DNA from: Candidatus Parcubacteria bacterium
Lineage (GTDB): Bacteria; Patescibacteriota; Patescibacteriia; Buchananbacterales; SURF-54
Assembly: GCA_003599635.1 (NCBI GenBank)
Contig: QZIX01000017.1
Span: 1 to 45,156, forward strand
Direction: 5' to 3'
DNA: 45,156 bases
Under the pieces are notes generated by a model. The model was not told where the DNA came from and did not search any database. It saw only the letters and a program-made list of their open reading frames with translations. The translations under genes were made by a program, and so were the position numbers. Each line of letters starts with the position of its first letter. The first letter of the stretch is position 1. Shown here in pieces: positions 11,525 to 45,156 of this stretch.

Positions 11525-11914
11525 GTTCTATATTTTAACAATTAACAATTGACTATTAACAAATAACTTCTAATAAATAGCCGGAATTTAAAATTAAATT
11601 CCTTATAAGCTTTAATTTTTGTGGTTAAATATCTCGGCCTATTAGTACCTCTCGGCTGAATGCATTACTGCACTTACACCTGAGGCCTATCAACCTCATC
11701 ATCTTTGAGGGGCCTATAATGAAACCTAATCTTGAAGACAGCTTCGCGCTTATATGCTTTCAGCGCTTATCTAAACCGAACTTAGCTACCCAGCGGTGCC
11801 CTTGGTAGAACAGCTGGTACACTAGAGGTTCGTTCTTCCCGGTCCTCTCGTACTAGGGAAGAGCCTTCTCAAGTTTCAACGTCCGTGGCGGATAGGAGAC
11901 CGAACTGTCTCACG

Positions 11915-12211
11915 CATGTTATTCCTAAATTGCTTTAGGCACTGACTATACCTTCATCCTCTCAAAAACATTTGAGGAGGAGCTAACGTCTGATAGAAGT
12001 TTAATTCCTGAATATCAGGTACCTTCTATCTCAGTCCGACATAACGTCGGACATCAGTCGATACGGGGAATAATTTATGCTGCAATAGCACAAAATTAAT
12101 CTTCCCTCGGTATTGCCCTAAAAAAATCAGTTCGTAAAATTAATTTAGGGTTTCACCGATATTAGTTAGATTTTTTTTATCACATTTCTGTGATAGAACG
12201 CAATGTAATTT
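11915..12211 (-). other. Group I intron in 23S at the site equivalent to L2593, 297 nt, no ORF
   Basis: Exons read GGGTTCAGAACGT^CGTGAGACAG in rRNA sense; intron ends in G; contains S-like element GAAGGTATAGTC. Confidence 0.82.
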
Positions 12212-12244
<33 letters not shown>

Positions 12245-12278
12245 TGGCGAACAGCCAAACCCTTGGGAGCTTCTTCAC

Positions 12279-12311
<33 letters not shown>

Positions 12312-12807
12312 GAACCGGGCCGTCTATGTGAACTATTGGGCCCGACTAGCCTGTTATCCCCGGAGTAGCTTTTATCCGTTGAGCTTCCGCCGTCCTATTT
12401 CGTACGGTCGGATCACTAACTTCTGCTTTCGCAACTGCTTGTCTGGTTAGACTCGCAGTAAAGCTGGCTTATGCGTTTGCACTATCATCCCGATTTCCAT
12501 CCGGGATTAGCCAACCTTTGTAAACGCCTCCGTTACTGTTTGGGAGGCAACCGCCCCAGTTAAACTACCCACCAGATACTGTCCCTTCACCCGCTTCAGG
12601 GCAAAAGGTTAGACTTAAAAAATCACAAGGGTGGTATCTCACTGTCGTCCCGCCAAAGGCGGGACTCCCACCTATTCTGAACATGCGAAACTTTAAGCCA
12701 ATATCAAGTTATAGTAAAGCTTCACGGGGTCTTTTCGTCCAGCCACGGATAACGAGCATCTTCACTCGTCTTGCAATTTCACCGAGTACCTCGTTGAGAC
12801 AGTTCTC

Positions 12808-12839
<32 letters not shown>

Positions 12840-12860
12840 CACCCGACAAGGAATTTCGCT

Positions 12861-13243
12861 CTTCGTTTCCCTTTTACGAAGGACTATATCTTCACCCGAT
12901 GCTTGATCGGGGCTTAGCGTATAGTCTCTGAGGATTCTTAATAGTTGAAATAGCTGCGGAAGTAATTATTTAGGTTGTTTAAAAAACAACTATGTTTGTT
13001 TTCCAACTACTTCTATTTCAACGCTTCTATTCACATTGTTTTTTCAATAGAAGCCGCTTTCAACAATTTTGTTATTAATATCATAACAAAATTTAACTAT
13101 TAAGCCTTTCCTGCTGGTCATGGATTACCACTTCCCAGCATACAGCTAAGTTTTTACGGACCAATTTTACATTGCTGTAAAACGAGGCAGACTTCTTTTA
13201 TAATCCGTCCCAGTCCTTTTGTTCTCATATATATAAGAACAAA
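12861..13243 (-). other. Group I intron in 23S at the site equivalent to L1931, 383 nt, no ORF
   Basis: Exons read CCGTCCTAAGGT^AGCGAAATTCC in rRNA sense; intron ends in G; R/S pair CTCAGAGACTATACG and AAGATATAGTCC form P7. Confidence 0.9.
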
Positions 13244-14081
13244 ACCTTAGGACGGTTATAGTTACCGCCGGCGTTCATCCGCGCTTCAGTTCAAGGCTCA
13301 TCCCGCTTGCGCGGGGGTCACCTCTCCCCTTAACGTTCGGACACTGGCCAGGCATCAGCCCCTATACATCACCTTACGGTTTAGCAGGGACCTTTGTTTT
13401 TGATAAACAGTCGCTTGAGATCTTTAGCTGCGTCCCGCCAAAGGCGGGAAGCCCTTATTGCGAACTTACGGACGCTTTTTTGCCGAGTTCCTAAACGAGG
13501 TTTCTCTCGTACACCTTAGCACACTTATGCCCGCCTACCTGTGTCGGTTTGCGGTACGGTTACTTTCAGCTTAACTCTAGAGGTTTTTCTAGACATCAGT
13601 TTTGACTTGATTGGCATCAGCAAGCTTTCAGCCTTTTGCCAAGTCGGAAATTTGCGGCAGCGGATTTGCCTACTGCCATTTCCAAATCAGCAACGTCCAT
13701 ACCATAGAACGTCAAATCTCCACTAATGCGTCACCCCGTCGAAAACCAAAAGTAGTGCTGGAATATTAACCAGCTCGTCCATCGACTACGCCTTTCGGCC
13801 TCGCCTTAGGACCGACTAACCCTGGGTCGATTTGCGTTGCCCAGGAAACCTCAGGCTTACGGTGGGCGGGGTTCTCACCCGCCTTTTTGCTACTCATGCC
13901 AACATTCTCTCTTCTTTAACCTCCACCAGCCCTCACGGGTCTGACTTCAGCGGTTAAAGAATGCTCCTCTACCGTCCGACGAAATAAATTCCGCCGGACC
14001 CATATCTTCGGTACTAAGCTTGAGCCCCGATAAATTTTCGGCGCAAGACAACTTGACCAGTGAGCTGTTACGCTTTCTTTA

Positions 14082-14112
<31 letters not shown>

Positions 14113-15560
14113 TTGTTTGAGTCATGTCACCACCTTTTACACTTAGCTTAGATTTAGGGACCTTAAATGATGGTCTGGGCTGTATCCCTTTTGACTAATG
14201 GAGCTTAGCCCCCACAGTCTTACTCCTGCCGATAAAGCTAACCCGGTATTCGGAGTTTGGTTGGGTGAAGTAGGATCACTCCATCCGCACCCATTCAGTG
14301 CTCTACCCCCGGGCGCAACGACAAGGCTAGCCCTAAAGCTATTTCGAGGAGAACCAGCTATCGCCAAGTTCGATTGGAATTTCTCCGCCAGCCACAACTC
14401 ATCCCAATGTTTTGCACAGCATACGGGTTCGGGCCTCCTCCCGCTGTTACGCGGGATTCACCCTGGTCATGGCTAGGTCACCTGGCTTCGGGTCTTGTAC
14501 AAATGACTAAATCGGGTTATTAACCCTCGCTTTCACTTTGCCTCCGTCCGTTAAGAACTTAGGCTTGCCATTTGAAACAAACTCGTTGGCTCATTCTTCA
14601 ATAGGAACGCCGTCATCCCGCGAACGCGGGACTCCGACTCTTTGTAAGCATATGGTTTCAGATACTATTTCATTTCCCTCACCGGGATGCTTTTCACCTT
14701 TCCCTCACGGTACTTGTTCGCTATCGATCATCAAAAGTATTTAGCCTTGGCCAATAGTCTGGCCTGCTTCCCGCAGGGTTTCACGAGTCCCGCGGTACTC
14801 AAAATAATCACTGTAGAGCTATAACCCCTTTCGCGTACAGGACTGTCACCTTCTATGGTTGCCACTTTCCAGAGGCATTCCACTAGGGAAGTCATATTTC
14901 ATATTACCCTACTTAAGCTTGCAAGAACTTAGATGCAATTATTTTACAACGTTCTATAGGCATTACGGGCTTGCACCCTTAATTTTAAAAATAAACCAAT
15001 CCTTGCGGATCAATAAATTTCCAAAAATAACCTACAGAATTTGGGCTCTTCCCTGTTCGCTCGCCACTACTAAGGGAATGGAGCAACTTACAATTCCGCA
15101 ATCGTCTAAAAGACAATTGCAAAATGTAAATTGCAAAATTCTTTTTCTTTTCCTCCGGCTACTAAGATGTTTCAATTTGCCGGGTCGTCTTCATTACCCT
15201 ATGAATTCAGGCAATGATGATCCGATCTTCCATCGGACCGGGTTACCCCATTCGGAGATCCACGGATCAAAGGTTGCTTGCCACCTAACCGAGGCTTATC
15301 GCAGGCTGCTGCGTCCTTCATCGTCTTTTGATGTCGAGGCATCCACCATATGCGCTTGAATGATATTTAACCACAAAAATTATAAGCTTATAATTTTCGT
15401 TTAAAAATTTTTTACTAATTGGTGTACTCGTTATCTATGTACTTATTTATTGTTTATTCAGTTGTTAAAGTTCCCGAAATTTCTGATTTTTGTTCTTGAC
15501 ATCCTCAAGGCAGCAGATTTTTGCTGAATTTCAGGAGGCCAATTTCTTTCCACCTGGACT

Positions 15561-18286: not shown

Positions 18287-21205
18287 ATGAAGGCTAGCAA
18301 ACAACTGTTAATCAACACTGCGCTAATCGCGTTTTTTTTGTTTTTGCCAAAAGCACTAAAAGCGCAGGAACTGACGGTTGTAATAAATGAAATCGGCGCT
18401 TACCAGGCAACTGACCATGAATGGATAGAAATTCTAAACGTCACGGGATCTCCAGTCGACCTTTCCGGCTGGAAATTCTGGGAAAACCAGACCAACCACG
18501 GCCTAAGTTTATTCCAGGGAGCTGACTTAATCATCGGGGTGGCTGAATATGCGATTATCGCTCAAAAAGCCGACATTTTCCATACCGATTACCCTGATTT
18601 TACCGGCACTATAATCGACAGCTCCTGGGGCAGCCTAAAAGAAGACGGAGAAGAGATAGGATTAAAAGATGCCGGAGGCAGTTTTATTGAACAGTTTACA
18701 TATACCCCGGCGCCTGATTTTTCTTTAGAAAGAACGGATTCCAATCTTGCAGACTATACATCAGTTAACTGGCACGAGCATTCAGATTCTAATACCGCAG
18801 GAATGGAAAACTCAGCACCGACGGTAAATCCTCCGGTCGATGAAATTTCTGATGGCAGCGCGTCTGATGATATTCCATCTGAAAATTCCAGTAATGAGGC
18901 TGCCCCCGAAATAATTGAAACCGGAAATACAACGGCCGAATATCTGCCTTCTGATATTGTTGTTAATGAGTTTATGCCCGATCCGGGTTCAGACGACGAA
19001 GAATGGATTGAGCTTTATTCCAATTACATTTATCCGATAAACTTGTCCGGCTGGACCATTGAAGACGGCACCGAAAAACCTCAAGCGCTTTCAGGTTCGA
19101 TTCTGCCGCGGCAATTTACGGTTTTGGAAAATCTGAATTTTCAGCTCAACAACGCTGGCGATATTATTGTTTTAAATGATGCAAACGGAAAAATCATTGA
19201 CCAGGTGTCTTTCGGCGCCTGGGATGACGGCAATATTTCAGACAATGCTCCCAAAAGCGGCAGCAGGCAAAGCCTGGCCAGAAATATTGACGGCAAAAAT
19301 ACTGACAACAATTTCAACGATTTTTCCAAAACATCCGCTGATACCAAAGGACTTGAAAATATTATCAGCTTTCAAGGTTCAGATGAATCGACGGATGTTG
19401 GTTGTGAAAAATCAGTTATCATAAATGAAGTTTTTCCCGATCCCCGGGGATCCGACGCTGATTATGAATGGATAGAATTGAAAAATCTAAACCAGGAAAA
19501 AATAAATCTGAAAAACTGGGTTTTAAAAGATGCCGCCAAAACCGGATTCACTTTTGCTGAAGATGAAATTACCGCCGGCGGCTTTATCATATTAAAAAGG
19601 GAGTTTACCAAAATCGCTTTAAATAACAGCGGTTCGGAAAAACTGCAGCTTCTTTCCAGCAGCGGCTGTCTGGTGTCGGAAATAAGCTATGAAGGCAAGG
19701 TAGTGGAAAATACAAGTTACGCCTTGAATGGCAGTAATTGGACATGGACGGAAAGCCCTACGCCGGGCGCGGAAAATATTATAAAACAGCCGAATCAAAG
19801 GCCAATTGCGGTAATTGACGCGCCGGGTACAGCCATAACCGGCGAAACCGTTTTATTTGACGCTTCCGACTCATCTGACCCGAACAATGACAATCTGGCT
19901 TTCCGCTGGGATTTTGGCGACGGAGTTTTGGGCAATTTAATTTCGACCAAACATACTTATGATACGGCGGGAAATTATCTGGTTAAATTAACGGTTACCG
20001 ACGATTCCGGGGCGGAGTCGGAAGTCATACAGGAAGTGAACATCACGAAAAATGGTGTTGTAAAAGAAACGCGGCAAACAGTGCCGACCGCCGAACGAAT
20101 TATCGTCAGCGAAATTTTTCCCAATCCATCAGGATCTGACGATGCGGAATTCATTGAACTTTACAACCCTACTCCCTGGCCGGTTGACTTGTCTTTTTGG
20201 CAAATAGACGATTCAAAAAACACGGGAAAGCCGTACAAGATCCCTTTAAAAACAACGATCGAACCTAGGCAGTTTTTGTTTTTCGAAAAAACGACAACAG
20301 GAATTATTTTAAACAATGATTCTGATTCAGTAAGACTTTCCGATCCTGTATCTAATTTGGTCGACCAAATAAAATATCAAAACCTAACCGAGGGCCATTC
20401 TTTGGCGATAGATGAGAATTATTTATGGCAGGAAACGTCAACGCCCACGCCGGGCGAAGAAAACAAAATCACTTTTTCTTCAGGTGCACAAAAGGCATCC
20501 GATAAATTTGAGGCAATGGCTCCGGCTGATGCGCAAAATCTTGATTCCGGTGAAAAAATCAAAGTTATCGGAACAGTCACGGCAATACCCGGGCTGTTTT
20601 CCTCCCAGTACTTTTACATTGACGGTCTGCAGATTTACAGTTTCAAAAAAGATTTTCCCTCTTTGGCTTACGGCGATAAAATCGAAGTTTCCGGTGAAAT
20701 TTCTAAAATCAATAACGAAAAACGACTCAAAATCAAAAGCAGGGAAGATATAAAAATTATTGCGCAAAATCAGCTGACAGCACCCCTGGAAATTTCAGTA
20801 GCCGAAATCACTGAAGAAAAACTGGGAATGCTCCTTAAAATTTCAGGCGAAGTCACGGATCTGAAAGGGTCGCTTTTTACTGTTGATGACGGAACCGAAG
20901 AAATTGCCGGGTATTTAAAAAACGGCACCGGCATAAAAAAAGATTTTAAAATCGGCGATACGGTCAATTTAACAGGTATAATTTCCGGCAGTAAAAACGG
21001 TTTGCAGATTTTACCAAGATCGCAGGATGATATTGTGCCAAGCAAAGTTTTGGGAGAATCAAACATTGAAACGACAACCGGCAACAGACAACTGTTTACG
21101 GTTTCAAGAAGCTGGTTTTTCCCTGTTACCCTTTTAATTCTAGCGGCTTTAATCCTTTGGCAGAGAATAAAAATAATCCAGTTAAAGGAATTTATAAAAG
21201 AATAG
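18287..21205 (+). CDS. Large secreted/anchored protein with repeated lamin-tail-like domains, PKD domain, OB-fold-like region and C-terminal TM
   Basis: Repeats of VINEI...EWIEILN/ELYN...VDLSGW; DSSDPNNDNLAFRWDFGDG PKD; IKVIGTVTAIPGLFSSQYFYIDGLQIYS; hydrophobic C-terminus. Confidence 0.83.
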   Translation: MKASKQLLINTALIAFFLFLPKALKAQELTVVINEIGAYQATDHEWIEILNVTGSPVDLSGWKFWENQTNHGLSLFQGADLIIGVAEYAIIAQKADIFHTDYPDFTGTIIDSSWGSLKEDGEEIGLKDAGGSFIEQFTYTPAPDFSLERTDSNLADYTSVNWHEHSDSNTAGMENSAPTVNPPVDEISDGSASDDIPSENSSNEAAPEIIETGNTTAEYLPSDIVVNEFMPDPGSDDEEWIELYSNYIYPINLSGWTIEDGTEKPQALSGSILPRQFTVLENLNFQLNNAGDIIVLNDANGKIIDQVSFGAWDDGNISDNAPKSGSRQSLARNIDGKNTDNNFNDFSKTSADTKGLENIISFQGSDESTDVGCEKSVIINEVFPDPRGSDADYEWIELKNLNQEKINLKNWVLKDAAKTGFTFAEDEITAGGFIILKREFTKIALNNSGSEKLQLLSSSGCLVSEISYEGKVVENTSYALNGSNWTWTESPTPGAENIIKQPNQRPIAVIDAPGTAITGETVLFDASDSSDPNNDNLAFRWDFGDGVLGNLISTKHTYDTAGNYLVKLTVTDDSGAESEVIQEVNITKNGVVKETRQTVPTAERIIVSEIFPNPSGSDDAEFIELYNPTPWPVDLSFWQIDDSKNTGKPYKIPLKTTIEPRQFLFFEKTTTGIILNNDSDSVRLSDPVSNLVDQIKYQNLTEGHSLAIDENYLWQETSTPTPGEENKITFSSGAQKASDKFEAMAPADAQNLDSGEKIKVIGTVTAIPGLFSSQYFYIDGLQIYSFKKDFPSLAYGDKIEVSGEISKINNEKRLKIKSREDIKIIAQNQLTAPLEISVAEITEEKLGMLLKISGEVTDLKGSLFTVDDGTEEIAGYLKNGTGIKKDFKIGDTVNLTGIISGSKNGLQILPRSQDDIVPSKVLGESNIETTTGNRQLFTVSRSWFFPVTLLILAALILWQRIKIIQLKEFIKE

Positions 21206-39930: not shown

Positions 39931-40743
39931 ATGGCAAAAGTAAAAAAAGCGGTTATCGCAGCAGCCGGTCTGGGAACTCGTTTTCTGCCGGCAACCAAGG
40001 CGCAGCCGAAAGAAATGCTGCCTATAATCGACAAGCCCATCATACAATATATAGCGGAAGAAGCAGTTGCATCAGGAATTGAAGACATAATAATTGTCAC
40101 CGGCCAAAGCAAACGGGCTATTGAAGATCACTTCGACCAGAACCAGGAACTGGAAAATCTGCTTATAAAAAGCGGCAAAAAAGAAAAAGCGAGAGAAATG
40201 GAAAAAATAGCTGAAATGGCGAATTTTATTTATATCAGACAAAAGGGCCCTTACGGCAACGGTACGCCGGTGCTTAACGTGAAACATTTAATCGGCAATG
40301 AACCATTCGCGGTAATGTTCGGTGACGACTTGTTTGTGGGGAAAAAACCCCGGCTGGCCCAATTGATTGACGTTTACAACAAATATACTGATCCGGTAAT
40401 TACCGCCGTGCCGACTGACGCTGACGGAACTAAAAAATACGGCATCATCGACGGTACAAAAGTCGAAACAAATGTTTATCAGGTAAAAAATATCATTGAA
40501 AAGCCGGGACCGCAAAAAGCTCCGACCCGGCTGGCTTCAATTTCGGGCTATATCTTTACGCCCGACATTTTTGATGCCCTGGAAAAAACCTCTTTGGGAA
40601 AAAATAACGAACTGTGGCTGGTCGACGCCATTTATAAACTTCTGAAAAAAAGACCCATTTATGCCTGCGAAGTCGACTGCGTTTACTACGATGTGGGATC
40701 TCCCTCCGGCTGGCTTAATGCCAATATAGAACTGTCAAAATAA
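39931..40743 (+). CDS. galU: UTP--glucose-1-phosphate uridylyltransferase
   Basis: KKAVIAAAGLGTRFLPATKAQPKEMLPIIDKPIIQYIAEEAVASGIEDIIIVTG. Confidence 0.95.
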   Translation: MAKVKKAVIAAAGLGTRFLPATKAQPKEMLPIIDKPIIQYIAEEAVASGIEDIIIVTGQSKRAIEDHFDQNQELENLLIKSGKKEKAREMEKIAEMANFIYIRQKGPYGNGTPVLNVKHLIGNEPFAVMFGDDLFVGKKPRLAQLIDVYNKYTDPVITAVPTDADGTKKYGIIDGTKVETNVYQVKNIIEKPGPQKAPTRLASISGYIFTPDIFDALEKTSLGKNNELWLVDAIYKLLKKRPIYACEVDCVYYDVGSPSGWLNANIELSK

Positions 40744-40747
40744 CAAA

Positions 40748-42118
40748 ATGAAAAAAATAAAAAAAATAACTATTCTGCTTTTGGCGGCAATGCTGGCGAC
40801 AACCGGTTTTCGCTGCAAATTCCAGCCCACTGAAGTCCAGCAAAAATTAAAACCAATAACACTGAACTATTGGCGCGCCTGGGACGATACTGAAGATTTT
40901 TCTCAAATCATAAATGAGTATCGGGCGATTCATCCCAATATCAACATCAACTACCGCAAATTAAGATACGAAGAATATGAAAAAGAACTTTTAGAGGCCT
41001 GGGCAGAAGACAGGGGCCCTGACATTTTTTCAGTCAGGAACACCTGGGTCAGGGCTTACGAAAGTAAAATATCGCCGTTGCCGAAAGAAATTTCCATGGC
41101 TTACCAGCGAACGGAAAAATCACTTGGCATTAAAGAAGAAACGGTGGTGGAAATAAAAAAACAAAAATCAATAACTCCGGCGGAAATCAAGCTGAATTTT
41201 TTGGACGTTGTTTATAAAGACGCGGTGATAGGAAGTGAAATATACGGACTGCCTTTAAGCGTTGACACCCTGGTTATGTTCTATAACCGAGGACTCCTTA
41301 ATAATGCCGGAATTTCCCTGGCGGCAGGCGATTGGCGGCAGTTTCAGACAGACGTTAAAAAAATCAGCTTATTGTCCCGTGACAATAATATCATCCAGGC
41401 CGGCACTGCTTTAGGGACTGGAAAAAATGTTTTGCACGCCTTTGATATAATTTCCCTCCTGATGATGCAAAACGGGGCGGTGATGGCGGACACGGCCGGC
41501 AACCCGACCTTTCATTCAATCCCCCCCGGCAGTTCCAGCAACTATAATCCCGGCATTGAAGCAACCAAATTTTATACGGATTTTGCTTCGCCTTCAAAAG
41601 AAGTTTATTCCTGGAATTCAAATATGACCAATTCCCGGCAGGCCTTTGCCCGGGGTCTTGTCGGATATTATTTCGGCTATTCTTCTGACATAGAATATAT
41701 TGAAAGGGACAGCCGGGGCAAATTAAATTACGGCATAACCAATATGCCGCAAATTGAGGGCAACACGGAGGTTAACATCGCCAACTACTGGCTGGAAACA
41801 GTGTCCAAAAAAAGCAAGTATCAAAATGAAGCCTGGGATTTCATTCAATTTATGACTCAGGCAAAAAATGTCAAAAGTTACCTGGGTTCAGCAGCCAGGC
41901 CGACTGCCTTAAGAGCTCTGATAGATGAACAAAAAAGTAACGGCAATATGGCAATTTTTGCCTCCCAGCTTTTAACGACCAAAACCTGGTATCAGGGAAA
42001 AAAAGCAGCCGAGGCAGAAGAAATTTTCAAAGAAATGGCCGATTCGATAGTCAAAGGCGAAGACCCGAATAAAGCCGTACCCTTTGCCGCTCAAAGAGTT
42101 TCACAAACAATACGTTAA
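40748..42118 (+). CDS. Extracellular solute-binding (carbohydrate ABC) protein
   Basis: LNYWRAWDDTEDFSQIINEYRAIHPNININYRKL...YGLPLSVDTLVMFYNRGLL; N-terminal signal peptide. Confidence 0.82.
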   Translation: MKKIKKITILLLAAMLATTGFRCKFQPTEVQQKLKPITLNYWRAWDDTEDFSQIINEYRAIHPNININYRKLRYEEYEKELLEAWAEDRGPDIFSVRNTWVRAYESKISPLPKEISMAYQRTEKSLGIKEETVVEIKKQKSITPAEIKLNFLDVVYKDAVIGSEIYGLPLSVDTLVMFYNRGLLNNAGISLAAGDWRQFQTDVKKISLLSRDNNIIQAGTALGTGKNVLHAFDIISLLMMQNGAVMADTAGNPTFHSIPPGSSSNYNPGIEATKFYTDFASPSKEVYSWNSNMTNSRQAFARGLVGYYFGYSSDIEYIERDSRGKLNYGITNMPQIEGNTEVNIANYWLETVSKKSKYQNEAWDFIQFMTQAKNVKSYLGSAARPTALRALIDEQKSNGNMAIFASQLLTTKTWYQGKKAAEAEEIFKEMADSIVKGEDPNKAVPFAAQRVSQTIR

Positions 42119-42135: not shown

Positions 42136-42621
42136 ATGGAATTAATAAAAAAATACAGTTTAGCTGTTTTATTTGCGCTTACCGTATTAAACTTTTTAAC
42201 GCCCGTCAAATCGTCCGCCGCAGAACCATGCGCGGTACAAGGACCGCAATGGCTGAAAGACATCGGCATTACAGACGGCCTGATTATTCCCTGCAACTGC
42301 ATTCAAGGCGACGGCAGCCAATGCCGTTTTCCGGAAATGATCCAGGTGGCGCTAAATATTTCCCAGCTGATTTTAGGAATAGTCGGCAGTCTGGCTTTAC
42401 TGATGTTTGTTTACGGAGGATTTATGTTTATCATCTCCCAGGGAAATGAACAAAAAGTAACTTCAGCCAGGCAGATTTTAAGCAATGCCGCCATCGGAAT
42501 CGTTATTGTTTTTGCCAGCTGGATTATAGTCAATACTGTCCTATTCGGGCTCACCGGTCAGGGCTCTTTGGCCGAAACTGTTAAAATATTCGGACGGGAA
42601 TGGAACAAAGCAGCTGAATAA
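42136..42621 (+). CDS. T4SS-pilin (VirB2/TrbC-like) family protein 1
   Basis: Signal sequence, two TM segments, MFVYGGFMFIISQGNEQKVTSARQILSNAAIGIVIVFASWIIVNTV. Confidence 0.78.
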   Translation: MELIKKYSLAVLFALTVLNFLTPVKSSAAEPCAVQGPQWLKDIGITDGLIIPCNCIQGDGSQCRFPEMIQVALNISQLILGIVGSLALLMFVYGGFMFIISQGNEQKVTSARQILSNAAIGIVIVFASWIIVNTVLFGLTGQGSLAETVKIFGREWNKAAE

Positions 42622-42654
42622 AAAAATACTGGGGATAAATATGAGGAAAAATTG

Positions 42655-42684
42655 TTGACAAAACGGGAAAAAAATTGCTATACT
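42655..42684 (+). promoter_or_regulatory. Sigma70-like promoter upstream of pilins 2-3
   Basis: TTGACA-18 bp-TATACT. Confidence 0.7.
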
Positions 42685-42800
42685 ATAACAAATTAAGTAA
42701 TCAATCAGGGTTTGCCCCTTTCTTTAAAAAATCTTTTAACATACTATTATTAACAACTTATAATCAATATAATTATAAGTAAAAGAAGGGGGGTGAGTTA

Positions 42801-43172
42801 ATGAAAAAATTAGCTATTTTTGCAGCAGTTATTGCTGTGTTCGCCTTTAGCGCGATGCCAGCGGTAGCTACGGCTTTGGACTTAGGAACCACATATTTGG
42901 GATCCACAGGACTAGGAACCAGAGAACTTCGCGAGGCGGTAATGAGCATTGTTAACGTCGCCTTAACTTTCCTGGCGGTAATCGCGATTTTAATCATACT
43001 TTACGGCGGTTTTGTCTGGATGACGGCAGCGGGTTCAGAAGATAAGGTTTCCCAGGCAAAAAATATTATTATCGCCGGAGTTATCGGTTTGGTTATAATA
43101 TTAGCCGCCTTGGCAATTACCAACTTTGTCTTGACTTCATTGATTAACGCAACCGGAGCCAATGCAGCTTAA
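42801..43172 (+). CDS. T4SS-pilin-like protein 2
   Basis: AGGGGGGTGAGTTA SD; YGGFVWMTAAGSEDKVSQAKNIIIAGVIGLVIILAALAITNFV. Confidence 0.85.
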   Translation: MKKLAIFAAVIAVFAFSAMPAVATALDLGTTYLGSTGLGTRELREAVMSIVNVALTFLAVIAILIILYGGFVWMTAAGSEDKVSQAKNIIIAGVIGLVIILAALAITNFVLTSLINATGANAA

Positions 43173-43212
43173 AAAAAATAATTACGAATTTCTTATGAAA
43201 GGGGGTGTAAAA

Positions 43213-43575
43213 ATGAAAAAATTAACTTTTATTGCCACTACGGTTGCTGTATTCACATTAGCCGTAATGCCGGTTCTGGCAGTTGATTTAGGCACCAGTT
43301 ATTTAGCTTCCACCGGATTGGGAACCAGAGAACTTCGCGAGGCGGTAATGAGCATTGTTAACGTTGCTTTGGGATTTCTGGGTGTATTAGCGATTTTAAT
43401 CATATTATGGGGCGGTTTCAGATGGATGACAGCCGGCGGTTCGGAAGATAAGGTCGGAGAAGCCAAAAAAATTATTGTTGCCGGTATTATCGGTTTAGTC
43501 ATAATATTAGCCGCTTTAGCAATCACCAATTTTGTCCTCGTAGCGTTGTTGAATGCCACCGGAGTTACACCATAA
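43213..43575 (+). CDS. T4SS-pilin-like protein 3
   Basis: AAAGGGGGTGTAAAA SD before ATG at 43213; WGGFRWMTAGGSEDKVGEAKKIIVAGIIGLVIILAALAITNFV. Confidence 0.85.
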   Translation: MKKLTFIATTVAVFTLAVMPVLAVDLGTSYLASTGLGTRELREAVMSIVNVALGFLGVLAILIILWGGFRWMTAGGSEDKVGEAKKIIVAGIIGLVIILAALAITNFVLVALLNATGVTP

Positions 43576-43587
43576 ACTTTTAACTTA

Positions 43588-43622
43588 TATAAAGGCCCGG
43601 GTTTTTCCGGGCCTTTATTTTT
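43588..43622 (+). terminator. Intrinsic terminator inside the pilin array
   Basis: AAAGGCCCGGGTTTTTCCGGGCCTTTATTTTTTTT. Confidence 0.85.
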
Positions 43623-43643
43623 TTTGGCAAAATATAGTATAAT

Positions 43644-44072
43644 ATGGGTATGAAACATTATTTTAACCTGAACAAGTATTGGGGAATATTACTTTCCCTG
43701 ACTTTAATAGTTAGCGGCCTGATAATGAATCTGAACAGTGTAAACGCCCAGCCGTCACAGGATCTCTACGGGCTTAAGCAGACAACCGATGCTGTTCCCG
43801 ATTTTCAGACCAATAAGGAAACCGATTTGTCTATAATCGCCGGCAGAGTTATAAATTATATTTTCGGTTTTGTCGGCATTATATTTTTAATAATGATCCT
43901 TATCGGCGGTTATAAGTGGATGTCATCAGGCGGCAATGAAGAAAGGGTAGCCGACGGGAAAAAAATGATTGTCCAGGGAATAAACGGCATGATTGCCATA
44001 TTTTTAGCCTATGCTTTGACTTACGCCGTTCTATCCGGTCTGAAAGCCGCCACTTCATCAACACAACAGTAA
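43644..44072 (+). CDS. T4SS-pilin-like protein 4
   Basis: IGGYKWMSSGGNEERVADGKKMIVQGINGMIAIFLAYALTYAV. Confidence 0.8.
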   Translation: MGMKHYFNLNKYWGILLSLTLIVSGLIMNLNSVNAQPSQDLYGLKQTTDAVPDFQTNKETDLSIIAGRVINYIFGFVGIIFLIMILIGGYKWMSSGGNEERVADGKKMIVQGINGMIAIFLAYALTYAVLSGLKAATSSTQQ

Positions 44073-44073
44073 A

Positions 44074-44487
44074 ATGAACAGAAAAAAAATATTAATTTCG
44101 CTGGCTTTAATTTTTTTTACGATTTTTATTCCCTGGTTTGATTTATCGGCATTGTCGGCCATTGATAATTTAAAAAATATGGGCGCAGAAGCCGGTTATA
44201 ATCCGGGCGATGCAGGCGCGCCGCCCAAAGAATTCGGCTCGGCGCTGATGACTTATGTGGACGGATTTTTATTAATCATCGGCGCCTTTTACGTTGTGCT
44301 GCTGATATTTGCCGGTTATTTATGGATGTCATCGGCGGGAAACAACGAGCAGATTTCCCGCGCCAAAAAAATTATTCTTTGGTCGTCTGCCGGCATTGCG
44401 ATTATAATTTTTGGCAGAATCATAGCTGAATTTGTAATTATATCTTTGGGTGAAGCGAGTAATGCCCCTTATAGCCCGACATCATGA
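44074..44487 (+). CDS. T4SS-pilin-like protein 5
   Basis: FAGYLWMSSAGNNEQISRAKKIILWSSAGIAIIIFGRIIAEFV. Confidence 0.8.
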   Translation: MNRKKILISLALIFFTIFIPWFDLSALSAIDNLKNMGAEAGYNPGDAGAPPKEFGSALMTYVDGFLLIIGAFYVVLLIFAGYLWMSSAGNNEQISRAKKIILWSSAGIAIIIFGRIIAEFVIISLGEASNAPYSPTS

Positions 44488-44894
44488 AAAAAAAGAATTT
44501 TAAAATTATCGTTTTTTTTCTTATTCTAACAGCTTTTAGCCCTGCTTTTGGCGCTTTGGCTGCTGATTCGGTTTTTGATCGCGTCTCGGGCAATTTAAGC
44601 GACACTGCAATTGAAGCCGGACTTAGAGACCGCGAAAGCACGGAAATGGCCGATTTTGCTTTATACCTGATGCGAATTATCAACATATTACTGAGCTTTA
44701 TCGGCATTGTTTTTTTAATACTAATTATATACGGCGGTTATCTTTGGATGACAGCTTCAGGCAATGAAGAACAGGTCGGAAAAGCCAAAAAAATGATTAT
44801 TGCTTCCGTAATCGGTTTGGCTATAGTATTAATGTCCCGAATAATTGCCGAGTTTGTGATCCTGGCTTTGGGGGAAAGCTCCGCTGCACAATAA
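44484..44894 (+). CDS. T4SS-pilin-like protein 6
   Basis: YGGYLWMTASGNEEQVGKAKKMIIASVIGLAIVLMSRIIAEFV; ATGA overlap with previous gene. Confidence 0.82.
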   Translation: MKKKNFKIIVFFLILTAFSPAFGALAADSVFDRVSGNLSDTAIEAGLRDRESTEMADFALYLMRIINILLSFIGIVFLILIIYGGYLWMTASGNEEQVGKAKKMIIASVIGLAIVLMSRIIAEFVILALGESSAAQ

Positions 44895-44898
44895 ATTT

Positions 44899-45156
44899 AT
44901 GATGTATAAAAAAACTCTTTTGATCTTCCTGACAGTGCTTTTGCTTGGGCCCGGTCTTGTTTTAGCCGATCCTTCGGACAATATCACGACCAAAATGACA
45001 GATCAGATCGAAAAATCAGGCACCATTCTGGAGAGTTATGAAAAAGGATCTAATGAACCTGAAATAATCGTCGCCAAAATAATTAATGTTTTGCTCAGTT
45101 TTCTGGGAGTTATATTCATCATCCTGATAATTTTCGGCGGCTTCAAATGGATGACA
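44899..45156 (+). CDS. T4SS-pilin-like protein 7 (truncated by window end)
   Basis: MMYKKTLLIFLTVLLLGPGLVLADPS...INVLLSFLGVIFIILIIFGGFKWMT. Confidence 0.75.
   Translation, partial: MMYKKTLLIFLTVLLLGPGLVLADPSDNITTKMTDQIEKSGTILESYEKGSNEPEIIVAKIINVLLSFLGVIFIILIIFGGFKWMT

What the first reader, a model, noticed from the sequence alone, without database searches (positions are those of the whole stretch)
42136..45156. Tandem array of at least seven diverged T4SS-pilin (VirB2/TrbC-like) paralogs, continuing past the window
Seven consecutive same-strand genes share one layout: signal-peptide-like N terminus, variable stretch, TM1, a (Y/F/W/I)GG(F/Y)xWM(T/S)xxGxE-type turn, a Lys-rich segment and TM2. 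Several are coupled by ATGA or near-zero spacing, and a strong terminator after number 3 splits the array into at least two units. VirB2/TrbC pilins usually occur as one or two copies; no ATPase, coupling protein or relaxase lies in this window. The variable region before TM1 may diversify surface filament subunits. Inference: a multi-subunit appendage or secretion/adhesion apparatus suited to an episymbiont. This is my best candidate for an undescribed system here.
Basis: partly seen in the sequence, partly recalled or inferred. Interest (0 to 1): 0.78.

Follow-up and report, generated by a model that had tools for sequence, protein, structure and literature searches.

The report
Known Patescibacteria pilin array with sugar-binding partner
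This is a row of seven diverged pilus-subunit genes of a type already described in Patescibacteria (tiny bacteria thought to live attached to other microbes); the less expected part is that the row starts with a sugar-binding-type protein that has no transporter of its own and sits beside pilin genes across much of the phylum.

Summary
Seven same-strand genes at 42136-45156 encode secreted two-helix proteins of Pfam T4SS_pilin (PF18895). The seventh is cut by the contig end; gene 3 really starts at 43213. The terminator (43589-43618) is real. An unnoticed strong promoter (42655-42684), conserved in six relatives, makes genes 2-3 a separate unit.

The 'undescribed system' reading is not supported. 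Arrays of 2-11 diverged VirB2-like pilins are published for Patescibacteria (PMC12102498), and one is essential for epibiotic growth in Ca. S. epibionticum (PMC10633639). Here 280 of 287 genomes sampled from the phylum carry the family. The T4SS core (VirB4, PrgI) and a T4CP-like ATPase lie on other contigs of this genome.

New, as far as the held papers show: (1) pilin positions are orthologous across genera, so these are old, specialised subunits; (2) pilin 1 follows an SBP_bac_1 lipoprotein in 84 of 87 scorable loci, and 179 of 218 genomes carrying that protein have no ABC permease, so a published 'sugar transporter' is probably a pilus partner; (3) relatives carry pilin-headed proteins of 3,300-5,800 aa related to pilins 2-3.

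Best model: a host-contact T4SS pilus with major pilins 2-3, minor pilins 4-7 and an SBP-linked pilin 1. Roles are inferred.

The parts
39931..40743 (+). galU (UTP-glucose-1-phosphate uridylyltransferase), conserved upstream neighbour; not claimed as part of the apparatus
   Evidence: TIGR01099 E 4e-97; same place in 13 loci
40748..42118 (+). Extracellular solute-binding protein (SBP_bac_1), lipoprotein-like (near-invariant Cys23), with no ABC permease in this genome; conserved partner of pilin 1
   Evidence: PF01547 E 5e-22; alignment; SBP fold; permease search negative
42136..42621 (+). Pilin 1 (p1), Cys-containing N-terminal part, always next to the SBP
   Evidence: PF18895 47.1 bits; one clade across 12 arrays
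42655..42684 (+). Strong sigma-70-type promoter TTGACA-N18-TATACT in front of pilin 2
   Evidence: 11/12 match; 11-12/12 in the same gap of six relatives
42801..43172 (+). Pilin 2, proposed major pilin
   Evidence: PF18895 39.8 bits; 73% identical to pilin 3
43213..43575 (+). Pilin 3, proposed major pilin (true start 43213; the ORF opens at 43162)
   Evidence: PF18895 47.4 bits; ribosome-binding site AAAGGGGGTG; 84% identical to L047 pilin 3; helical hairpin model pLDDT 82
43589..43618 (+). Intrinsic terminator closing the pilin 2-3 unit
   Evidence: 13-pair stem, loop 4, T-run
43644..44072 (+). Pilin 4, proposed minor pilin
   Evidence: PF18895 30.9 bits; orthologue L047 p4
44074..44487 (+). 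Pilin 5, proposed minor pilin
   Evidence: PF18895 26.5 bits, 28.1 (cut-off 26.6)
44484..44894 (+). Pilin 6, proposed minor pilin; ATGA overlap with pilin 5
   Evidence: PF18895 32.0 bits
44899..45156 (+). Pilin 7, truncated by the contig end
   Evidence: open frame; array profile E 1e-17; contig ends at 45156

Best explanation
The genes encode subunits of the pilus of the chromosomal, relaxase-poor T4SS of Patescibacteria (class ABY1), which is thought to work in contact with a host cell. Proposed working: each subunit enters the membrane through Sec, loses its signal peptide and sits as a helical hairpin with the basic turn between its helices. The VirB4 ATPase (on contig C16) then extracts subunits into a filament. 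Pilins 2 and 3, made from their own strong promoter and ribosome-binding sites, form the filament body (major pilins). Pilins 4-7+ are scarcer, faster-evolving minor subunits. Pilin 1 is a dedicated partner of the SBP lipoprotein encoded just upstream, which would act at the pilus base or tip, for example in glycan recognition or subunit handling, rather than in sugar uptake. Shown here: family, gene order, orthology by position, promoter and terminator sequences, SBP fold, absence of a permease, presence of VirB4, PrgI and a T4CP-like protein in the genome. Inferred: filament formation, major and minor roles, SBP function, host contact.
For: PF18895 matches. VirB4 and PrgI on C16 beside radA-, recG- and comF-like genes, the neighbours published for ABY1 T4SS loci (PMC12102498); T4CP-like ATPase and an eighth pilin on C3. 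Pilin arrays are essential with the T4SS in Ca. S. epibionticum. Pilins 2/3: 11-12/12 promoter conserved in seven loci, strong ribosome-binding sites, short branches in the tree while later pilins have long ones. Pilin 1 and SBP: adjacent in 84 of 87 scorable loci, median gap 11 bp; p1 reciprocal best hits 348 of 371 on p1; SBP in 218 of 287 phylum genomes and permease absent in 179 of those 218.
Against: No solved structure matches the pilin, by sequence or fold (best E 0.3), so filament formation is unproven. PF04956 (TrbC/VirB2) is not reached by any window pilin. The array is not linked to virB4 in this genome. Adjacency does not prove that the SBP binds a pilin; in 6 of 24 out-of-class loci no pilin follows it. 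Out of class, the resemblance of the first pilin to p1 often rests on small score differences.
Confidence: 0.62

Rival explanations
1. The array is a reservoir for diversity: paralogs vary the exposed region before TM1 to match different hosts or avoid defences, as proposed for Bartonella and Anaplasma VirB2 arrays, with any one subunit able to build the filament.
For: Low identity inside the array; long branches and lineage-specific duplications among later pilins (34 of 99 middle pilins have their best hit in their own array); proposed in PMC12102498.
Against: Pilin 1 is one clade across 12 arrays and positions 2/3 mostly pair with each other; pilins 2/3 are conserved across genera. Fixed positions and different transcription units suit fixed roles.
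Confidence: 0.17
2. The SBP is an ordinary sugar or glycan receptor for uptake, next to the array by chance or through co-regulation with galU.
For: Confident SBP fold close to oligosaccharide-binding proteins; listed as a retained sugar transporter component (K02027) in PMC7137472.
Against: No PF00528 permease in the own genome and in 179 of 218 SBP-bearing genomes, while the same search rings in all 14 control genomes; adjacency to a pilin in most loci in and out of the class.
Confidence: 0.18
3. The proteins are not filament subunits but small membrane anchors of the cell envelope that only share a hairpin with T4SS pilins.
For: No significant structural match to a solved pilin; PF04956 not reached; in relatives the same module heads proteins of up to 5,761 aa, which suits an anchor.
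Against: Curated T4SS_pilin family over its cut-off; one relative's pilin head scores TrbC E 4e-6, just below the cut-off; pilin genes cluster with T4SS genes in other Patescibacteria and are essential with them.
Confidence: 0.15

Closest known systems
VirB2-like pilin arrays of Patescibacteria (PMC12102498; Ca. Southlakia epibionticum SEML1_0006-0019, PMC10633639)
   Same: Same Pfam family, tandem arrays of 2-11 genes, low mutual identity (about 25% there, 25-41% here), no relaxase found with the common model, VirB4 and PrgI in the genome.
   Different: In this genome the array stands apart from virB4 (different contig); the galU-SBP-pilin 1 head, the conserved promoter before pilins 2-3 and the positional orthology are not mentioned in those texts as far as I searched them.
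MPF_FATA conjugation systems of monoderm bacteria
   Same: VirB4 and PrgI homologues; PMC12102498 places Patescibacteria VirB4 with this class.
   Different: MPF_FATA systems lack VirB2 pilins and are tied to relaxases; here pilins abound and the relaxase model PF03432 finds nothing.
VirB2/TrbC pilins of diderm T4SS (PF04956)
   Same: Signal peptide and two-helix layout; weak sub-threshold similarity (p4 E 0.019; a relative's pilin head 4e-6).
   Different: Below the PF04956 cut-off for every window pilin; many paralogs instead of one or two.
VirB2 arrays of Bartonella and Anaplasma
   Same: Tandem amplification and divergence of T4SS pilins.
   Different: Those are virulence systems of diderms; no orthologous-position pattern or SBP partner is known to me there (recalled, not tested).
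Sugar ABC transporter solute-binding proteins (SBP_bac_1)
   Same: Sequence family and fold.
   Different: No permease in most genomes, and genetic linkage to T4SS pilins.

Membership tests
T4SS_pilin (PF18895) | Score over the curated cut-off (26.6 bits) | tested here: met
   Pilins 1-4 and 6 over it; 5 at 26.5 and 28.1; 7 truncated
T4SS_pilin (PF18895) | Signal peptide and two TM helices | tested here: met
   Hydropathy; predicted helices 37-72 and 78-116 in pilin 3
VirB2/TrbC (PF04956) | Score over the curated cut-off (27.9 bits) | tested here: not met
   Best window value 15.6 bits, pilin 4
VirB2/TrbC (PF04956) | Fold match to a solved VirB2/TraA-type pilin | tested here: inconclusive
   No significant Foldseek hit; short helical hairpins are poorly resolved by this method
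Patescibacteria T4SS pilin array (PMC12102498) | 2-11 diverged pilin genes in tandem | tested here: met
   Seven genes, 25-73% identity
Patescibacteria T4SS pilin array (PMC12102498) | VirB4 and PrgI/VirB3 in the genome | tested here: met
   C16: PF19044 E 1e-29, PF12666 E 4e-7
Patescibacteria T4SS pilin array (PMC12102498) | Filament on the cell surface | not testable with these tools
   Needs microscopy or proteomics
Conjugative T4SS | Relaxase | tested here: inconclusive
   PF03432 finds nothing in the own genome; other relaxase classes not searched and the genome is 79.7% complete
Conjugative T4SS | Coupling protein | tested here: inconclusive
   TrwB_AAD_bind ATPase on C3, but PMC12102498 notes it may serve another function
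Sugar ABC transporter (for the SBP) | SBP_bac_1 domain and SBP fold | tested here: met
Sugar ABC transporter (for the SBP) | Membrane permease (PF00528) in the genome | tested here: not met
   0 in own genome; 3/18 relatives; 41/287 in the phylum; own genome is incomplete

The most novel reading that the evidence does not exclude
Across Patescibacteria a sugar-binding-protein fold lost its ABC transporter and became a dedicated component of the host-contact T4SS pilus, working with a specific pilin (p1). In class ABY1 the same pilus also carries giant (3,300-5,800 aa) pilin-headed adhesins with Ig-like, lectin-like and VWA domains, so the filament is a composite of major pilin, specialised minor pilins and giant adhesins.
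Probability: 0.4. Interest if true: 0.7.

Novelty: new member of a known kind. Interest (0 to 1): 0.42.

Why it matters
The array itself adds one more example to a described class. What could matter is the partner. A protein listed in the literature as a retained sugar transporter of Patescibacteria is almost always encoded next to a T4SS pilin in this class and lacks a transporter in most genomes. If it belongs to the pilus, it is a new, testable part of the apparatus these episymbionts may use on their hosts, and a correction to metabolic reconstructions. The ordered orthology gives each pilin a defined identity that can be tagged, deleted or searched for in proteomes, and the giant pilin-headed proteins are candidates for host-binding adhesins.

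Tried and rejected
2. PDB sequence search with the pilin profile (no hit) and Foldseek of the pilin 3 model (no significant hit): no structural confirmation of VirB2. 3. 'Undescribed system': rejected on PMC12102498, PMC10633639 and the phylum-wide count. 4. Recent antigenic diversification as the main explanation: weakened by the positional orthology; no relatives of the same genus were held, so dN/dS was not attempted. 5. SBP as part of an ABC transporter: permease search negative; the 278-447 aa genes that flank the SBP in some out-of-class loci do not read as permeases and those genomes have no PF00528 match. 6. Literature on an SBP-pilin link: five full-text searches gave no paper that describes it; the one relevant paper calls the SBP a transporter. 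Absence in this open-access library is not proof. 7. Giant pilin-headed proteins in the own genome: not found, but a search with the hisS-like gene that precedes that locus in relatives also found nothing in this 79.7% complete assembly, so absence means little.
Full report
WHAT IS THERE. The window is one whole contig (C2, 45,156 bp) of a 0.78 Mb, 79.7% complete genome in 19 contigs. The nearest records in the named genome collection are Patescibacteria: a close unnamed 'Patescibacteria group' MAG, Ca. Buchananbacteria and Ca. Falkowbacteria, i.e. the ABY1 class by established naming (inference). At the 3' end are galU (39931-40743), an extracellular solute-binding protein (SBP, 40748-42118) and seven pilin genes, the last cut by the contig end. 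The Pfam T4SS_pilin model (PF18895) scores 47.1, 39.8, 47.4, 30.9, 26.5 and 32.0 bits for pilins 1-6 against a cut-off of 26.6; a profile made from the array recovers the truncated seventh. Each complete one has a signal-peptide-like start and two further hydrophobic segments. Identity inside the array is 25-41%, except pilins 2 and 3 at 73%.

REGULATORY LAYOUT. Six relatives have an 11/12 or 12/12 promoter in the same gap, and first-order Markov shuffles of each gap reach the observed score in at most 1.3% of trials. Pilins 2 and 3 carry strong ribosome-binding sites (AAGGGGGGTG, AAAGGGGGTG), which also shows that pilin 3 starts at 43213, not 43162. So there are at least three units: galU-SBP-pilin 1, pilins 2-3, and pilins 4-7+. 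The terminator is less widely conserved than the promoter.

REST OF THE APPARATUS. No T4SS ATPase, coupling protein or relaxase was found among the main window ORFs scanned. The same genome has VirB4 and PrgI on C16, with a 224-aa gene between them that fits TrsD by position but has no Pfam match, beside radA-, recG- and comF-like genes; the published ABY1 T4SS loci have comF, recG and radA neighbours (PMC12102498). Contig C3 has an eighth pilin and a T4CP-like ATPase (TrwB_AAD_bind). The relaxase model PF03432 finds nothing.

KNOWN OR NEW. Arrays of 2-11 VirB2-like pilins in Patescibacteria, mean identity 25%, are published: 441 arrays in 383 assemblies (PMC12102498). A pilin series inside the essential T4SS cluster of Ca. 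S. epibionticum was found by Tn-seq (PMC10633639). In the present data PF18895 occurs in 35 of 35 relatives and 280 of 287 genomes drawn across the phylum. The array is therefore a member of a known kind.

WHAT THE COMPARISON ADDS, 1: POSITIONAL ORTHOLOGY. Between 24 arrays of five or more genes, reciprocal best hits of position 1 fall on position 1 in 348 of 371 cases; positions 2 and 3 mostly pair with each other (416 of 594), and the rest pair mainly among themselves. In a tree of 108 rows, pilin 1 of 12 arrays is one side of a branch (SH-aLRT 87; 1 change against 11.7 for shuffled labels). Pilins 2/3 of the nearer relatives fall in a starred set (95) with short branches, while later pilins have long ones. 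The tree is a quick one on 145 columns and many forks are open. I read this as an old set with fixed, different roles, with pilins 2/3 the conserved, strongly expressed (major) ones. That reading is inference. About a third of the middle pilins have their best hit in their own array, so lineage-specific duplication goes on as well.

WHAT THE COMPARISON ADDS, 2: THE SBP. A pilin follows the SBP within 500 bp in 81 of 91 loci; four others end at the contig edge, and three of the remaining six turn out to carry a pilin at once after the SBP, so 84 of 87 (loci may include near-duplicates). The median gap is 11 bp. In many Falkowbacteria only this one pilin follows, so SBP plus pilin 1 is the minimal unit. 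Outside the class the SBP is followed by a pilin in 18 of 24 loci, with one more at a contig edge (my count), and the first pilin there resembles p1 best in 14 of 19 scored loci, two of which are the same genome. The SBP is found in 218 of 287 phylum genomes. The ABC permease family PF00528 is found in 41 of 287, of which 39 have the SBP, so 179 of 218 SBP genomes have none (cross-checked by handle), although the same search rings in all 14 control genomes. The own genome has none. The predicted structure is a confident SBP fold (pLDDT 92) matching oligosaccharide-binding proteins (E 4e-23, TM 0.68/0.79). A 2020 paper lists this function (K02027) as a retained sugar transporter component of Patescibacteria (PMC7137472); that its K02027 is this same protein is my inference. 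The evidence here favours a pilus partner instead, but binding to a pilin is not shown.

WHAT THE COMPARISON ADDS, 3: GIANT PILIN-HEADED PROTEINS. In relatives the pilin module heads very long proteins: 5,761 aa in G004 (L188+L190), a 5,332-aa frame in G010 (L189), and 3,312 and 3,309 aa in G033 and G025. Each is preceded by a 620-960 aa pilin-headed protein, and in all four by a gene whose sequence reads as histidyl-tRNA synthetase (my reading, not profiled). The G004 pair has Ig-like, concanavalin-lectin and VWA domains. The heads tested (G004, G010) fall in the p2/p3 set. They look like pilus-displayed adhesins. None was seen in the own genome, but a search with the upstream hisS-like gene also found nothing there, so the locus is probably just missing from the assembly.

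MECHANISM. Most likely (0.62): Sec-dependent insertion as hairpins, VirB4-driven extraction into a thin filament with pilins 2/3 as the body, pilins 4-7 as minor subunits, and pilin 1 tied to the SBP at base or tip. Rivals are a diversity reservoir (0.17), an ordinary sugar receptor next to the array by chance (0.18, which concerns only the SBP), and non-filament membrane anchors (0.15). These are not mutually exclusive, so the figures need not sum to one.

LIMITS. No closed genome of this organism; VirB6 and most relaxase classes not searched; no solved structure of this pilin family to compare with; the literature library is open-access only. The reading of 'first pilin resembles p1' outside the class rests on small score differences in several loci.

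Noticed in passing
L188 6410-19900 (continues in L190), L189 6369-19901, L192 1982-11917, L193 1446-11372: Giant proteins (3,300-5,800 aa) of relatives that begin with a T4SS_pilin module, each preceded by a 620-960 aa pilin-headed protein, downstream of a hisS-like gene; the G004 pair has Ig-like, lectin-like and VWA domains.
   Followed up: partly
window 11621-15372 (intron 11923-12221), - strand: 23S rRNA gene stretched to 3.75 kb, with a group I intron match inside it (RF00028); no 16S match was listed in this contig.
   Followed up: no
L184 4945-5817, L185 5081-5875: In two out-of-class genomes the same SBP family lies just downstream of a sortase (L184 shown by Pfam; L185 by its similar sequence) instead of next to recognisable pilins.
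   Followed up: partly
window 18287-21205: 972 aa protein with PKD and four lamin-tail (LTD) domains, probably a surface or secreted protein.
   Followed up: no
L032 13376-13954, L041 10382-10864, L043 10615-11085: A 156-192 aa gene on the opposite strand is inserted before the last pilin in three related arrays; the two tested (L032 and the L041 copy in L048) have no Pfam match.
   Followed up: partly
L032, L034, L038-L041, L043 (after the array): A DUF2079 membrane protein of about 640 aa follows the pilin array in eight loci, with glycosyltransferase genes beyond it in several.
   Followed up: no
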